DNA from: Frankia torreyi
Lineage (GTDB): Bacteria; Actinomycetota; Actinomycetes; Frankiales; Frankiaceae
Assembly (NCBI RefSeq): GCF_000948395.1
Contig: NZ_JYFN01000002.1
Location: 21,694 to 85,693, forward strand
DNA: 64,000 nucleotides
Direction of reading: 5' to 3'
How positions within the stretch are numbered: position 1 is the first letter of the stretch; each line of letters starts with the position of its first letter. The translations under genes and the position numbers were made by a program. Below are positions 4,598 through 26,921 of the stretch, piece after piece. The notes under the pieces are model-generated. The model was not told the origin of the DNA and did no database searches. It saw only the letters and a program-made list of their open reading frames with translations.

Positions 4598-4792
4598 GGC
4601 CGCCGGTGCGCCGCGCCCTGCCGATGCCGATGCCGAGAGCACTCCTCCATCCCAACTCCGGGACAATCTGAGATGGATTTCTCGGTGTTGCGGATTGGTG
4701 GCTGCAACGCCCCCGCCGGCGGGATCGAGGAGACTTTTCGGCCCGGTGCCCGTGAGGATCGAACCCGCCGGAGATTCGGCTGGGTTGAGGTC

Positions 4793-21188: not shown

Positions 21189-21602
21189 TCAGAGCTCGGT
21201 CCGCGCCCCACGCTGGTCGCGGCGCAGCGGGTGGTCGGGTGGGATCTCGACGACCACGATGGGGATGCCGTCCGGGTCCTCGATCCACATCTCGTCGAGC
21301 CCCCACGGTTCCCGCTGCGGGTCGCGGACGATCGGCACCCCCGCGGCGGCGAGCCGGCGGTGCTCGGCGGCGAGGTCGCGCACCTGCAGCCACAGGCGCA
21401 CCCGCCCCGCGCCGCCGCCGGCCGGCTCCTCGGCGCGGCCGGAGACCTCCAGCAGGCTCTGCCCGAGGAAGAACACCAGGCCGGGATCGTCCGGCGGCCC
21501 GAACTCCCGGTAGATCGCCAGCCCCAGGATGTCGCGATAGAAGCGGCGACTGCGCCCCGGGTCGACCGGCCTGATGAGAATCCGACTGCTGAGAACCTCC
21601 AT
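21189..21602 (-). CDS. Glyoxalase/bleomycin-resistance (VOC) family protein
   Basis: A 137-residue metalloprotein of the vicinal oxygen chelate fold. It shows the two beta-alpha-beta-beta-beta halves: ILIRPVDPGRSRRFYRDILG at the start, GLVFFLGQSLLEVSG in the middle, VRLWLQVRDLAAEHRRLAAAG and EMWIEDPDGIPIVVVEIP at the end. The Glu in the last strand is the usual C-terminal metal ligand. It could be a lyase, dioxygenase or drug-binding protein. It lies downstream of the RidA gene on the same strand, about 90 bases away, and may be the last gene of that operon. Confidence 0.85.
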   Translation of the reverse strand: MEVLSSRILIRPVDPGRSRRFYRDILGLAIYREFGPPDDPGLVFFLGQSLLEVSGRAEEPAGGGAGRVRLWLQVRDLAAEHRRLAAAGVPIVRDPQREPWGLDEMWIEDPDGIPIVVVEIPPDHPLRRDQRGARTEL

Positions 21603-21693: not shown

Positions 21694-22083
21694 CTACGGC
21701 GCCGCCGCGGGTGCGCGCACGGCGATCGCCTGGAGCTCGACGAGCACGACGGGCAGCGCGAAACCGGTCACCAGGGTGGTCCGGGCAGGGGGGTGCACAG
21801 GCCAGGCCGCGGCGAAGGCGCTGTCCCACAGCGGGAAGTCCGCCGGACGGGCCAGGAACGCCTCCACCCGCAGCGCGTAGTGCAGGCCGCTGCCGGCCGC
21901 GCGCAGGACCTCGCCCAGCGCTCCCAGGGCGCCGTCGATCTGCTGGCGGACGTCGGGGGTGGTGGCCGGCGTCAGGCCGGGGCGCAGCAGGTCGGGGCAG
22001 ATCACGCCGGAGGTGACGACGAGCTCGCCGTGGCCGGTGGCGCCCGAGATCGACGGAAGCTGACCGGGCACCCTCGTGATCAC
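21694..22083 (-). CDS. RidA family (YjgF/YER057c/UK114) protein
   Basis: A 129-residue trimer-forming enzyme or ligand-binding protein. RidA members hydrolyse reactive 2-imino acids and enamines released by flavin- or PLP-enzymes. Family features are GELVVTSGVICPD near the N-terminus, DVRQQIDGALGALGEVLRAAG, the strand with RVEAFLA and the C-terminal ARTTLVTGFALPVVLVELQ. The key Arg of active RidA proteins corresponds to PARTTL. The GTG start overlaps the TGA of the FMN oxidase gene by four bases, so the two are translated together, suggesting RidA clears a by-product of that enzyme. Confidence 0.88.
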   Translation of the reverse strand: MITRVPGQLPSISGATGHGELVVTSGVICPDLLRPGLTPATTPDVRQQIDGALGALGEVLRAAGSGLHYALRVEAFLARPADFPLWDSAFAAAWPVHPPARTTLVTGFALPVVLVELQAIAVRAPAAAP

Positions 22084-23309
22084 GGCCGGCTCCGCTGGAG
22101 GGCCGCGGGGGTCAGTTCGGTGACCGACCCGTGCCCGAGCAGGGTCAGCACGGTGACCATCTCCTCGTGCAGCAGGGCCAGGACGCGGGCCACCCCGGCC
22201 TCGCCGCCCGCGGCCAGACCGGCGGCGGCCAGCCGGCCGATGACCACGGCGCGCGCCCCGAGGGCGAGGGCCTTCACGACGTCCGTGCCGCAGCGCACCC
22301 CGCTGTCGAGCAGGACCTCGGCGCGGCCGTCGGCGGCCGCGACGACCTCGGGGAGCTGGTCGAGCGCGGCGGGCGTGCCGTCGAGCTGGCGCCCGCCGTG
22401 GTTGGACACGAGCACGGCGGCGGCGCCGGCGTCGATGGCGGCGCGGGTGTCCTGCGCGGTGAGGATGCCCTTCGCGATCCACGGCAGGTCGGTGTGGCGC
22501 ATCAGCCGGGCCAGCCGGTCCCAGGTCCAGACGGGTTCGTCGCGGGCGAAGAGCTGGCCGAAGACGTCCTGGGCCGCGACGTCGCCGCCCGGCGGGTAGT
22601 TACCGGTGATCATCCGCAGGTCGACGGTGAAACGGTTGCGCAGGTTGCGCTCGCGCCACCCGGCGGTCGGGCAGTCGACGGTCACGCACACGGCCGCGTA
22701 GCCGGCGCGTTCGATGCGCTCCAGCATGCGCACGAAGTTGCGTTCGGTGCCCATGGGGTGCACCTGCGCCACGCGCGCCGCCGCCGGGGCGGCCTGGGCG
22801 ACGCTCTCGATCGAGTGGGTGCCTGCCTCGGGAACGATGCTCAACGTCCCGCACCGGGCGTTCGCCCGGGCCACGGCGAGGTGGCCGTCGGTGTCGAAGA
22901 ACCCGTCGGTGCCGAACGGCGCCGTCAGGACCGGCAGACGCATCGGCAGGCCGAGCACGGTGGTGGCGGTGGAGGGCACCGGGTGGCCGCTCATGACCCG
23001 GGGGCGGAACTGCCAGCCCGCGAACGCGTCGCGGTTGGCCCGCAGCGTCGTCTCCTGCCCGGCGCCGCCGGCGAGGAAGTCCCACACGTCGCGGGGCAGC
23101 ACCGCCTGCGCCGCCGCGCGGATCTCCGTCAGCGTCGGAAACCGCCCCGCGATCGGATCGCCCCTCTCGGCCTGCGCCGACCCGACGCCGTCCGACCGGG
23201 CCCCCGCAGACTCGGTTCCGGCCGGCCCGATCCCCGCCGGCCCGATCCCCGCCGGCCCGGTTCCGTCCGGCCCGACCTCCGTCTGGCCGACTCCCGCCGC
23301 GGTCGTCAT
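22080..23309 (-). CDS. FMN-dependent alpha-hydroxy acid oxidase/dehydrogenase
   Basis: A 409-residue flavoprotein of the glycolate/lactate oxidase family with a TIM-barrel FMN domain. Motifs in order: the FLAGGAGQETTLRANRDAF entry segment, PVLTAPFGTDG, CVTVDCPTAGWRERNLRNRF, LPWIAKGILTAQDT with the FMN-contacting Lys, and the active-site block VSNHGGRQLDGTPA, where His and Arg bind the 2-hydroxy acid carboxylate, then LLDSGVRCGTDVVKALALGA. The first 45 residues are a low-complexity extension with GPAGI repeats absent from standard members. ATG overlaps the stop of the ABC ATPase gene (ATGA). The substrate is presumably what the transporter brings in, but identity is unknown. Confidence 0.93.
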   Translation of the reverse strand: MTTAAGVGQTEVGPDGTGPAGIGPAGIGPAGTESAGARSDGVGSAQAERGDPIAGRFPTLTEIRAAAQAVLPRDVWDFLAGGAGQETTLRANRDAFAGWQFRPRVMSGHPVPSTATTVLGLPMRLPVLTAPFGTDGFFDTDGHLAVARANARCGTLSIVPEAGTHSIESVAQAAPAAARVAQVHPMGTERNFVRMLERIERAGYAAVCVTVDCPTAGWRERNLRNRFTVDLRMITGNYPPGGDVAAQDVFGQLFARDEPVWTWDRLARLMRHTDLPWIAKGILTAQDTRAAIDAGAAAVLVSNHGGRQLDGTPAALDQLPEVVAAADGRAEVLLDSGVRCGTDVVKALALGARAVVIGRLAAAGLAAGGEAGVARVLALLHEEMVTVLTLLGHGSVTELTPAALQRSRP

Positions 23310-24109
23310 GACGCCACCTTCTCGATCAGCGCGCTGCGGTCGCTCAGCGCGTCGCCGGCGCCGGTGATCCGGTCGATCAGGCCGCCTACCGTCATCTCGG
23401 ACTTCTCCGTTCCGTCGTAGTCCGCGATCACCCGGCCCCGGCTCATCACCAGCAGCCGGTCGCCCAGGGCGAGCGCGTGATCCATGTTGTGGGTGACCAT
23501 GACCGTGGTGGCGCCCAGCTCGCGCACCAGCTCGGTGGTCAGCGCGAGCACGGTGGCGGTCGTCCCCGGGTCCAACGCCGCCAGGTGCTCGTCGAGGAGC
23601 AGCACCGACGGGGCGCTCAGGGCGGCCATCACCATCGTCAGGCTCTGGCGCTGGCCCGCCGAGAGCAGCCCGACGCGGTCGGCGAGCCGGTTCTCCAACC
23701 CGAGACCCAGACCGGCGACGTGCTCGCGCATGACGGCGCGCCGGCGGGCGGTCACGGCGAACCGCAGCCCGCGCCTGCGCCCGCGGGCCATCGCCAGCGC
23801 CAGGTTGTCCTCGATGGACAGCTCCGGCGCGGTGCCCGCCCGGGGATCGTCGAAGACCCGGGCGATCCAGCCGGCGCGGCGGTGGTCGGGCAGCCGGGTG
23901 ACGTCGCGGCCGTCGAGGTGGACCCGGCCGCGGGTCGGGCGGGCCGCACCCGAGATCGTCTGGATCAGGCTCGACTTCCCGGCGCCGTTCGTGCCGACGA
24001 CGGTCACGAACTGCCCGCGTTCGAAGGTGACGCTGAGACTGCGCAGCGCCACCACCTCGTCGACCCGGCCGGCGTTGTAGATCAGGTCGATGTCGTCCAA
24101 CCGGAGCAT
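23306..24109 (-). CDS. ABC transporter ATPase (TrpX/YkrX-type importer)
   Basis: A 267-residue ATPase. Walker A is VVGTNGAGKSS, the signature is LLSAGQRQSLTMVMA (Ser-Ala-Gly-Gln in place of the common SGGQ), Walker B is VLLLDEHLAALDP with DEH instead of DEP, and the switch His is in MVTHNMDHAL. DEH and the altered signature are typical of the ATPases that accompany TrpX-like binding proteins. The ATG shares one base with the permease stop (TGATG). It energises import by the adjacent permease. Confidence 0.92.
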   Translation of the reverse strand: MLRLDDIDLIYNAGRVDEVVALRSLSVTFERGQFVTVVGTNGAGKSSLIQTISGAARPTRGRVHLDGRDVTRLPDHRRAGWIARVFDDPRAGTAPELSIEDNLALAMARGRRRGLRFAVTARRRAVMREHVAGLGLGLENRLADRVGLLSAGQRQSLTMVMAALSAPSVLLLDEHLAALDPGTTATVLALTTELVRELGATTVMVTHNMDHALALGDRLLVMSRGRVIADYDGTEKSEMTVGGLIDRITGAGDALSDRSALIEKVAS

Positions 24110-25050
24110 CAGGCGGCCTCCTGCCGGACGGCGGCGCTGGCCGAGCGGGTGGTGTGGGCGAGCGTGCGGGCGAGGCCGCCGAGCGCACCGAGGTAGCGTT
24201 CGGCCGCGATCGCCACGAGCAGCGTCAGCGCCGTGACCCCCCGCAGGTCGCCCGCGGGCAGCCCCACCCGCAGCGCACCGACCAGGACCAGCCGGTAGGC
24301 CAGCGTGCCGACCAGCACACAGCCGACGATGCGCAGCAGCTTCGACCCCGACGGGCGGACGAACAGCTCGCCGAGCAGCACCGCGCCGACCCCGGCGACG
24401 AAGGTGCCCGCGCCCATGTTGACGTCGGCGTAGCCCTGGTACTGCACGCTGAGGCTCGCCCCGAGTCCGGCCAGGCCGTTGGCGAGCACGAGCGCCAGCA
24501 CGGTCAGCCGGCGGTCGTTGACACCCTGGCTGCGGGCCATCCGCGCGTTGACGCCGGTGGCCCGCAGCGCCAGGCCCAGCTCGGTGCGCAGGAACAGGCC
24601 GAACGCGACGAGCACCACGGCGACGACCCCGGCCATCACCCCGGAGGTGGCCAGGTCGGCCTGCCGGCCGGACAGCGAACCGAAGCCGCTGAACAGCGTG
24701 CCCTGCGTGCCGAGGCTCAGCGTGGGGGTGTCGAGCACGTGCAGGTTCACGCTGAACAGCCCGATGCTCATCACCAGGCCGGCGAGCAGCACCGGAACCC
24801 GCAGCAGCAGGTGGATCAGCGCCGTGACGGCGCCGGCGGCGGCCGCGCCGGCCGTCCCCGCCAGCAGGGCGAGCCAGCTCGGCCAGCCGTGCACCAGCGT
24901 GAGGGCGCACACCGCGCCGCCGGTGACGAAGCTGCCCTCGACGGTGAGGTCGAAGTCCGCGCGCAGCCGGAAGACGGTGTAGATGCCGAGGAACACCGGC
25001 ACCAGCGGCAGGCCGGTGACCAGCATGTCCAGCAGGACCTGGATCATCAC
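24109..25050 (-). CDS. ABC transporter permease (TrpX-associated family)
   Basis: A 313-residue membrane protein with about eight to nine hydrophobic segments, for example FLGIYTVFRLRADFDLTVEG, SFVTGGAVCALTLVHGWPS and VFVAG-like segments after GYADVNMGAGT. The pattern ADFDLTVEGSF followed by a glycine-rich helix and the late EELFV-like loop (LLGELFVRPSG) fits permeases linked to ABC_sub_bind receptors. The start may be GTG 25050 or ATG 25047; either overlaps the stop of the receptor gene. It forms the channel of the importer. Confidence 0.9.
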   Translation of the reverse strand: MMIQVLLDMLVTGLPLVPVFLGIYTVFRLRADFDLTVEGSFVTGGAVCALTLVHGWPSWLALLAGTAGAAAAGAVTALIHLLLRVPVLLAGLVMSIGLFSVNLHVLDTPTLSLGTQGTLFSGFGSLSGRQADLATSGVMAGVVAVVLVAFGLFLRTELGLALRATGVNARMARSQGVNDRRLTVLALVLANGLAGLGASLSVQYQGYADVNMGAGTFVAGVGAVLLGELFVRPSGSKLLRIVGCVLVGTLAYRLVLVGALRVGLPAGDLRGVTALTLLVAIAAERYLGALGGLARTLAHTTRSASAAVRQEAA

Positions 25051-26111
25051 TGCACCGTCGCCGCGCTCAGCAGGTCCGCCGGCAGGGTGATCCCGAGTTT
25101 GGTCATGGTGGCCTTCTGGACGGTGAACCCGACGCCCGACGGCTGGCCGAAGGCGACCTCGGCGGCGGGCGTGCCCGTCAGCACCTTCGCGGCGGAGTCG
25201 GCGGCCAGGCGGCCGAGCGTCGGATAGTCCGGTCCGATGCTGGCCAGGATGCCCGCGACGGTGGCGTCCCCGCCGACGACGTAGACCGGCAGCCGCCCGC
25301 CGGCCGCGGCCGAACCGACGACGGGCAGCGCGGCCAGCACGGTGGCGTCGGGGCCGATGAGCTCGGCGTCGACCCGCCCGGTGAGGCTGCGCGCGGCGCT
25401 GGGCACGTCCTGGGCGCCGGAGATCGTCGACTCCACCACGCTCACCCCGGGGTACTTCGCCACCGCGGCGCGCAACGCCTTGATCCAGACCTGCATGTTC
25501 TGGTTGGACGGGTCGTAGATCGTCCCGAGGCGCTTCGGGGCCGGCGTGATCTTCATGATCGACTGCAGCAGCACGGCCGGATCGACGTAGTCGACGCTGC
25601 CGGTGACGTTCTTCCCGGGCCGGTCGAGACTCTGCGCGACCTTCGCGCCGACCGGGTCGCCCATCGCCAGGGCGAAGATGGGCTTTTCCTGCGTCTGCTG
25701 CGCCAGGGCGACCACGGCGGGGGTGCCGATGACGGCGACGCCGTCGGAGTCCGACTGGGCGAAGCTCCGGGAGATGCTGGTGATGAGGCTCTGGTCACCC
25801 TGGGCGTTCTTCACGTCGAAACTGACCGGACGGGGGGCGAGTTTCGTTTTCAGTTCCTGCTCGAAGGCGGCCACGGTCTGGTCGATGACGGTCGCGCTGG
25901 CGAGCTGGAGCACGCCCACGTGCACCGTCTTCGCGGTGGCGGCGGAGGAGGCGCCGGCGCCCGTGCCCGCGGGGGAGCCGTCGCCGCCGGAGGATCCGCA
26001 GGCTGCCAGGGAGATCGCCGCGGCCAGGCAGGAGGCGACGGCCGGCGCGAGAACGCGTCCGCCGCGTCGGCCGTGGGCGTGGGGCCCGGGTGTCAATGTG
26101 GTAACGGCCAT
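25047..26111 (-). CDS. ABC transporter substrate-binding lipoprotein (ABC_sub_bind, TrpX-like)
   Basis: A 354-residue receptor. The N-terminus is Arg-rich, followed by a hydrophobic stretch and lipobox ISLAAC, then a Ser/Gly/Ala linker. The mature fold starts VHVGVLQLASATVIDQTVAA and includes SISRSFAQSDSDGVAVIGTP, DRPGKNVTGSVDYVDPAVLL and GTIYDPSNQNMQVWIKALRA, all hallmarks of the ABC_sub_bind family whose known members bind tryptophan, tyrosine or related solutes. It is the first gene of a five-gene overlapping operon that continues with permease, ATPase, FMN oxidase and RidA. A divergent TetR gene shares its upstream region. Confidence 0.92.
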   Translation of the reverse strand: MAVTTLTPGPHAHGRRGGRVLAPAVASCLAAAISLAACGSSGGDGSPAGTGAGASSAATAKTVHVGVLQLASATVIDQTVAAFEQELKTKLAPRPVSFDVKNAQGDQSLITSISRSFAQSDSDGVAVIGTPAVVALAQQTQEKPIFALAMGDPVGAKVAQSLDRPGKNVTGSVDYVDPAVLLQSIMKITPAPKRLGTIYDPSNQNMQVWIKALRAAVAKYPGVSVVESTISGAQDVPSAARSLTGRVDAELIGPDATVLAALPVVGSAAAGGRLPVYVVGGDATVAGILASIGPDYPTLGRLAADSAAKVLTGTPAAEVAFGQPSGVGFTVQKATMTKLGITLPADLLSAATVQ

Positions 26112-26240
26112 GTGACATCGCTTTCGGGGAGCGGGGAAAGGGATTGATTTGGCGATCTTCTCGCGGACATGGGAAGATTTTCGCGTGTTGCCAGAGTCTT
26201 GAGGTCGGCCCGGATGACTGTCAAGGCGCGAAACATGAGA

Positions 26241-26264
26241 TTAACTTCCCAGGTTATGGGTTAA
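26241..26264. promoter_or_regulatory. Candidate operator between the importer operon and a divergent TetR gene
   Basis: An inverted repeat TTAAC-N14-GTTAA lies in the only AT-rich stretch of the 210-base divergent promoter region. It contains an inner AACTTCCCAGGTT near-palindrome. It could be the binding site of the adjacent TetR-type regulator. Confidence 0.4.
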
Positions 26265-26321: not shown

Positions 26322-26921
26322 ATGGCGGGTCCGAGACCGGGACTGCGGCGGGACACCCAGGAGACCCGCGACCGGCTGCTGGCCGCGGTAGGCGAGCTGC
26401 TCGCCGAGTCCGGCCCCACCTTCGGCCTGCCCGAACTCGCCCGCCGCGGCGGTGTGGCCACCGCCACCGCCTACCGGCACTTCGAGTCGATCCACGACGC
26501 GCACCGCGAGTTCCTGCTGCAGCTCACCGGCCGGCTCACCGACCGGCTGCAGTCGGTGCCGCCCACCTGGACCCCGCGCCGGCGCTTCGACGCCGCCTGC
26601 GAACGGTGGGCCGAGCAGGCCGCGGACTGGGGCCCGGCGGCGGTGCACATCCGCAGCTGGCGGGGGTTCCTCGAGCGCGTCCACCTCGGTGACGAGCCCA
26701 CCGGCGCGCTCTACGCCGCCCTCGAGCCGATCGTGCGCGACCTCATCGAGCACGGGGAGCTTCCCGACCAGGACGTCGAGTACGCCGTGCTCGTCTGGAT
26801 CACGATGTTCGACGAGCGGGTGATCGTCGACCTGCGCGAGTCCAAGGGCTGGCCGCTGCAGCGCCTGGCCCGCGTCCTCGGCCGCAGCGTCCTGTCCGCC
26901 CTCGGCGGCACCGCCACCTGA
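26322..26921 (+). CDS. TetR family transcriptional regulator
   Basis: A 199-residue regulator. Helix-turn-helix: [40 protein letters not shown] and [11 protein letters not shown]. The C-terminal domain is Trp-rich ([21 protein letters not shown]) and forms the effector pocket. The ATG follows AGGGGGAGCGG, a good ribosome-binding site. It is transcribed away from the ABC importer/FMN oxidase/RidA operon and is the obvious candidate to control it in response to the imported compound. Confidence 0.9.

What the first reader, a model, noticed from the sequence alone, without database searches (positions are those of the whole stretch)
21694..26111. Overlapping five-gene operon: TrpX-type importer, FMN 2-hydroxyacid oxidase and RidA
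All four junctions overlap by 1-4 bases, so the proteins are made together. A TrpX-like receptor suggests an aromatic amino acid or derivative. An FMN oxidase of the glycolate/lactate family could act on the matching 2-hydroxy (or 2-amino) acid, and RidA would remove a reactive imine or enamine. Import, oxidation and damage control in one translational unit is not a pathway I recognise. A divergent TetR gene with a palindromic site may regulate it, and a VOC-fold gene follows.
Basis: partly seen in the sequence, partly recalled or inferred. Interest (0 to 1): 0.65.

Follow-up and report, generated by a model that had tools for sequence, protein, structure and literature searches.

The report
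Importer–FMN-oxidase–Rid operon with TetR switch
A Frankia bacterium carries a conserved, self-regulated gene set that imports a small molecule, oxidises it with an unusual flavin enzyme and probably mops up the reactive imine that results; the substrate is unknown, but the gene set, its control switch and the altered enzyme active site are shared with distant relatives.

Summary
Five genes (SBP, permease, ATPase, FMN_dh, Rid) on the minus strand, 26111-21694, overlap at all four junctions by 1, 1, 4 and 4 nt. The set is a real evolutionary unit: the same 11 of 395 class genomes hold both oxidase and receptor, a second genus keeps the operon and its TetR gene at about 50-60% identity, and one genome shows it decaying.

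New here: (1) TetR orthologues flank the oxidase in Frankia, the second genus, Kineosporia and a Rhodococcus plasmid, with a shared palindrome, TGAGAA-N4-TTCTCA, at the promoters. In five 9-11 Mb genomes the perfect palindrome occurs seven times, six at operon promoters. (2) The oxidase lies in a distinct clade in which the normally invariant active-site Tyr (glycolate oxidase Tyr129) is replaced, by His in 16 of 18 members. (3) A Rid gene accompanies 4 of 7 gene contexts of this clade and none of 23 other FMN_dh. (4) The 'TrpX-type' receptor lost two of five shared ligand contacts and the HPxLD His, so an aromatic amino acid is not supported.

Best reading: a TetR-controlled catabolic unit oxidising an imported amino acid (or analogue) to an imino acid that Rid hydrolyses. 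Substrate and chemistry are untested.

The parts
25047..26111 (-). Lipoprotein solute-binding protein, ABC_sub_bind (PF04392) family, diverged ligand pocket
   Evidence: Pfam 3.5e-44; AF2 model best matches 3lft, 3lkv, 6hni; pocket residues changed
24109..25047 (-). ABC permease (BPD_transp_2)
   Evidence: Pfam 3.7e-21; orthologues 50-98% in syntenic loci
23306..24109 (-). ABC ATPase
   Evidence: Pfam 5.4e-24; orthologues 61-98% in syntenic loci
22080..23309 (-). FMN-dependent oxidase (FMN_dh) with His in place of glycolate-oxidase Tyr129 and Phe in place of Tyr24; Lys230, His254, Arg257 kept
   Evidence: Pfam 2.1e-108; residue table; tree
21694..22083 (-). Rid (YjgF/RidA superfamily) protein with catalytic Arg and Glu kept
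   Evidence: Pfam 1.5e-8; alignment
26322..26921 (+). TetR-type regulator, divergent
   Evidence: Orthologues 45-52% next to the oxidase in Kineosporia (L022), Rhodococcus plasmid (L049) and genus g7
26236..26251 (.). Proposed TetR operator TGAGATTAACTTCCCA (10/12 of TGAGAA-N4-TTCTCA)
   Evidence: identical in five Frankia loci, single hit in each of three whole genomes
26170..26185 (.). Weaker second operator-like site TGGGAAGATTTTCGCG (9/12 by my count), about 59 bp upstream of the SBP start
   Evidence: Site; score counted by hand
21189..21602 (-). VOC/glyoxalase-fold gene, accessory (not conserved with the operon outside close Frankia)
   Evidence: Pfam 2.3e-13; found only in close Frankia loci

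Best explanation
A TetR-repressed catabolic unit. The lipoprotein receptor and the permease/ATPase pair import a small carboxylate-bearing metabolite (inferred). The FMN enzyme oxidises it at the alpha carbon (family and catalytic residues shown, substrate inferred); the substrate is most likely an amino acid or amino-acid-like compound, giving a reactive 2-imino acid. The Rid protein hydrolyses the imine to the 2-oxo acid and ammonia (residues shown, activity inferred). The divergent TetR protein binds TGAGAA-N4-TTCTCA sites at the promoters and lets go when substrate or product is present (site conservation shown; binding, repression and effector inferred).
For: Operon and synteny. FMN and SBP co-occur in the same 11 of 395 genomes, and within the family in 11 of 35 with neither in the other 24 (not corrected for relatedness). 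G005 keeps only pieces: SBP tail, permease pieces, ATPase joined to the last part of Rid; oxidase and TetR gone. FMN keeps D157/R164/K230/H254/R257. Rid keeps the PAR-motif Arg and the Glu; Rid proteins with this Arg are the imine-hydrolysing kind, and RidA and Rid2 act on amino acid oxidase imines (PMC4433059). Rid in 4 of 7 contexts of the oxidase clade (this operon; L047; Rhodococcus plasmid L049; Rhizobium L052/Salipiger L050) against 0 of 23 outside it. L047 pairs oxidase and Rid with a different importer whose permease passes the His/Glu/Gln/Arg/opine model TIGR01726. Rhodococcus has oxidase and a RidA plus 2-oxo acid dehydrogenase operon around one divergent promoter region, fitting a 2-oxo acid product. 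Operator. A related FMN_dh, MftD, performs oxidative deamination (PMC7491314).
Against: No substrate, activity or binding data. The same FMN residues serve 2-hydroxy acids, so a hydroxy acid fits as well on the enzyme alone. Rid is absent from one otherwise complete operon copy (L046) and from the Kineosporia, L051 and L088 contexts. Two Rid-linked members (L050, L052) replaced catalytic His254 by Tyr and Tyr129 by Thr and sit beside an FAD oxidoreductase, which their Rid may serve instead. The window Rid is a weak family match (35 bits). The Frankia operator matches only 10 of 12 positions.
Confidence: 0.5

Rival explanations
1. The oxidase acts on an imported 2-hydroxy acid and yields a 2-oxo acid and H2O2; Rid protects against an imine or enamine formed elsewhere or has a non-deaminase role.
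For: All best solved relatives are 2-hydroxy acid oxidases: lactate, glycolate, hydroxymandelate. Hydroxymandelate oxidase also has Phe24 (PMC6677016). Rid is dispensable in L046 and missing in Kineosporia and L088.
Against: Rid is the only other enzyme in the operon, recurs in 4 of 7 contexts of this clade and in none of 23 outgroup FMN_dh, and the Tyr that contacts the alpha-OH is replaced in every clade member.
Confidence: 0.3
2. Replacement of Tyr129 turns the enzyme into a four-electron oxidative decarboxylase (lactate-monooxygenase-like), giving a one-carbon-shorter acid.
For: Hmo Y128F, at the equivalent position, converts mandelate to benzoate (PMC6677016, PMC6778850). The clade never has Tyr there.
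Against: His is not Phe and can still hydrogen-bond. In Rhodococcus the clade member shares a divergent promoter region with a 2-oxo acid dehydrogenase complex, which needs an intact 2-oxo acid. Gives no obvious role for Rid.
Confidence: 0.12
3. No functional coupling: genes gathered by horizontal transfer, with Rid as a passenger.
For: Rid scores weakly and overlap lengths vary between species; some relatives lack Rid.
Against: Order kept at 50-60% identity although TetR moved to the other end; FMN-Rid start/stop overlap seen in both genera; repeated Rid pairing with different importers.
Confidence: 0.08

Closest known systems
TrpXYZ / CD0873-type aromatic amino acid ABC importers (PF04392)
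   Same: Same receptor family and fold (AF2 model best hits 3lft, 3lkv, 6hni), with a permease and an ATPase
   Different: Below the TrpX cut-off (169.8 vs 390 bits); Thr129->Gly, Asn233->Ala, HPxLD His->Ala; linked to catabolic enzymes; TetR operator, whereas S. suis trpXYZ uses a T-box (PMC9382623)
Glycolate oxidase / hydroxymandelate oxidase (Hmo) family of FMN 2-hydroxy acid oxidases
   Same: Family; D157, R164, K230, H254, R257; Phe24 as in Hmo
   Different: Tyr129 (Hmo Tyr128) replaced by His throughout the actinobacterial part of the clade
Pseudomonas dad operon with the Rid protein DadY, and FAD amine oxidase-RidA clusters
   Same: Amino acid oxidation paired with a Rid protein (PMC4433059 read; PMC9714295 abstract only)
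   Different: FMN_dh enzyme instead of an FAD enzyme; own ABC importer and TetR switch; amino acid substrate here only inferred
MftD, pre-mycofactocin synthase
   Same: FMN_dh family member that performs oxidative deamination
   Different: MftD model score far below cut-off (218 vs 470.85 bits); Arg257 kept here, Asn in the host's own likely MftD-type paralogue L003

Membership tests
TrpX equivalog (NF041285) | Score above curated cut-off (390 bits) | tested here: not met
   169.8 bits
TrpX/CD0873 aromatic amino acid receptors | Five shared ligand contacts (T108, A127, T129, D152, N233 of S. suis TrpX) | tested here: not met
   T108, A127, D152 kept; T129->Gly and N233->Ala in all eight operon receptors (residues from PMC9382623)
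ABC_sub_bind (PF04392) | Score above Pfam gathering cut-off | tested here: met
   151.6 bits vs 25.9
FMN_dh (PF01070) | Score above gathering cut-off; Lys230, His254, Arg257 | tested here: met
   362.9 bits vs 24.9; residues kept
Canonical 2-hydroxy acid oxidase (GOX/Hmo/LOX type) | Tyr at GOX 129 / Hmo 128, forming the catalytic dyad with His | tested here: not met
   His in the window protein; Tyr in all 25 rows outside the clade
MftD (TIGR03966) | Score above cut-off | tested here: not met
   218 vs 470.85 bits
Rid superfamily (PF01042) | Score above gathering cut-off | tested here: met
   35.1 vs 27.3 bits
Imine-hydrolysing Rid (RidA, Rid1-3) | Conserved Arg (Arg105 type) | tested here: met
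   Arg of the PAR/PSR motif kept in all Rid compared; the Tyr17 and Asn88 equivalents differ in the window protein
Imine-hydrolysing Rid (RidA, Rid1-3) | Imine deaminase activity | not testable with these tools
   Needs an assay
TetR family | TetR_N above gathering cut-off | tested here: inconclusive
   20.7 vs 24 bits; its Rhodococcus orthologue is annotated TetR/AcrR

The most novel reading that the evidence does not exclude
A new clade of FMN_dh enzymes in which the alpha-OH-binding Tyr was replaced by His and which oxidise free amino acids (or amino-acid conjugates) to imino acids, with dedicated Rid partners, swappable importers and a conserved TetR/TGAGAA-N4-TTCTCA switch: an FMN-based counterpart of the FAD amino acid dehydrogenase-Rid systems.
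Probability: 0.35. Interest if true: 0.7.

Novelty: new variant of a known kind. Interest (0 to 1): 0.5.

Why it matters
If right, the glycolate/lactate oxidase superfamily contains an unrecognised amino-acid-oxidising branch with a one-residue active-site marker, and the module gives a ready test of whether a Rid protein is a dedicated pathway partner rather than a housekeeping enzyme. The operator makes the inducer, and so the substrate, searchable. The papers searched (an open-access subset only) did not describe this set.

Tried and rejected
Aromatic ligand from the TrpX label: rejected as unsupported after the pocket comparison. Wider regulon to reveal the pathway: no further exact sites in the three Frankia genomes searched, and one extra site in one g7 genome near an MFS-like reading frame. 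TetR relatives in genus g5: beside tsaD/tsaE genes, no operator, no clue. Kineosporia neighbours: metallophosphoesterase, radical SAM, protein kinase, no pathway clue. Frankia symbiosis papers: nothing on these genes by the terms searched. The receptor model (mean pLDDT 74) gave only the known family, with no coordinates to inspect the pocket. A PDB search with the Rhodococcus E1 alpha subunit hit pyruvate and branched-chain enzymes alike, so it does not size the substrate.

Full report
Observation. The five minus-strand genes and their four overlaps (1, 1, 4, 4 nt) are exactly as described, and domain calls agree. The host is a Frankia: the nearest named loci are F. gtarii, F. tisae and Frankia sp. 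AiPs1 at 92-95% oxidase identity.

Conservation. Searching 395 class genomes with the oxidase (E<=1e-90) and with the receptor (E<=1e-40) returned the same 11 genomes, plus one with a receptor only, G239 (Fisher p 1.5e-20, not corrected for relatedness). Receptor and oxidase lie about 3 kb apart in each. Loci L036-L046 show the order SBP-permease-ATPase-FMN-Rid with TetR either divergent (Frankia) or convergent at the far end (g7), at about 47-63% identity to the window (Rid about 40%) in g7. L046 lacks Rid. In G002 the oxidase ends its contig C245, and Rid and TetR lie at the start of contig C111, so the unit is probably split by the assembly. G005 carries a relic in which the ATPase end meets residues 88-125 of Rid, with the oxidase and TetR gone. 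The overlap is kept at permease-ATPase in both genera and mostly at FMN-Rid, but not at ATPase-FMN in g7.

Regulator and operator. TetR orthologues (45-52%) also neighbour the oxidase in Kineosporia babensis (L022) and on the Rhodococcus erythropolis plasmid pRLCBG43 (L049), where no such importer adjoins. A 16-bp palindrome, TGAGAA-N4-TTCTCA, lies upstream of SBP in g7 (12/12), twice between TetR and oxidase in Kineosporia (11/12), before the oxidase in Rhodococcus (11/12), and as TGAGATTAACTTCCCA at window 26236-26251 (10/12). Shuffles expect 0-0.35 per locus, and loci without this TetR/oxidase pair have none; the window itself has one other 10/12 hit, at 4669. In five g7 genomes the perfect palindrome occurs at seven places, six of them this operon's promoter. 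The Frankia version is found once in each of three genomes. The palindrome was read off these promoters, so the within-locus test is not independent, but the genome-wide rarity is informative. Repression and effector are inferred.

Oxidase. A maximum-likelihood tree puts the window protein in an 18-row clade on a 100/100 branch. All sixteen actinobacterial members have His where glycolate oxidase has Tyr129, and the two alphaproteobacterial ones have Thr; all 25 rows outside keep Tyr. Tyr24 is usually Phe. K230, R164 and R257 are kept throughout the clade, and D157 and H254 in all but the two alphaproteobacterial rows. In Hmo this Tyr contacts the alpha-OH, and Y128F makes a four-electron decarboxylase (PMC6677016, PMC6778850). 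So substrate or outcome probably differs from plain glycolate or lactate oxidation; which way is not shown.

Rid. The window Rid keeps the Arg needed for imine hydrolysis and the Glu (PMC4433059). A Rid gene accompanies the clade in this operon; in L047 with a polar-amino-acid/opine-type importer, SLAC1 and PucR genes; in Rhodococcus with a 2-oxo acid dehydrogenase complex; and in Rhizobium and Salipiger with an FAD oxidoreductase and another ABC importer. It was not found in Kineosporia, L051 or L088. None of 23 other FMN_dh loci has one (four of these were viewed with only about 1.5 kb flanks). The plasmid contexts were found by oxidase similarity, not by Rid. A count of 3 of 6 actinobacterial contexts against 0 of 20 gives Fisher p 0.008: suggestive, small sample.

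Receptor. Sequence and predicted fold place it with the Trp-, Tyr- and Phe-binding structures, but Thr129, Asn233 and the HPxLD His are replaced in both branches, while G239's receptor, outside this unit, keeps them. The equivalent of specificity residue 279/284 is Tyr, not the Gln of the Trp binder (PMC6816091). The ligand is therefore open.

Verdict. A genuine, conserved, locally regulated module of known protein kinds in an uncharacterised combination, with an altered active site. Amino acid oxidation with Rid clean-up is the best reading, at about 0.5; a hydroxy acid substrate is the main rival.

Noticed in passing
L050:7998-9098 and L052:7926-9065: Alphaproteobacterial FMN_dh relatives in FAD-oxidoreductase/Rid/ABC clusters replaced the catalytic His254 by Tyr, Tyr129 by Thr and Asp157 by Ser: possibly a different reaction.
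   Followed up: partly
L047:3928-13000 (G032:C80): Separate gene set: polar amino acid-type importer, SLAC1, clade oxidase, Rid, alpha/beta hydrolase, PucR regulator.
   Followed up: partly
L113:6533-10790 (G005): Decayed relic of the operon with the oxidase and TetR gone and the VOC gene still present about 2.4 kb away.
   Followed up: partly
L088:8262-16746 (G544): Clade oxidase in a cluster with NMT1-type receptor, permease, MmgE/PrpD, SDR, CMD and EamA genes; no Rid found.
   Followed up: partly
L003 (G000:C2:252614-253699): Host paralogue of FMN_dh with Arg257->Asn, probably the mycofactocin enzyme MftD (not tested with its model).
   Followed up: no
L112:7328-10816 (G028): Second TetR relative (47%) convergent with a large peroxidase-domain gene, no operator site.
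   Followed up: no
window 21189-21602: VOC-fold gene downstream, kept only in close Frankia.
   Followed up: partly
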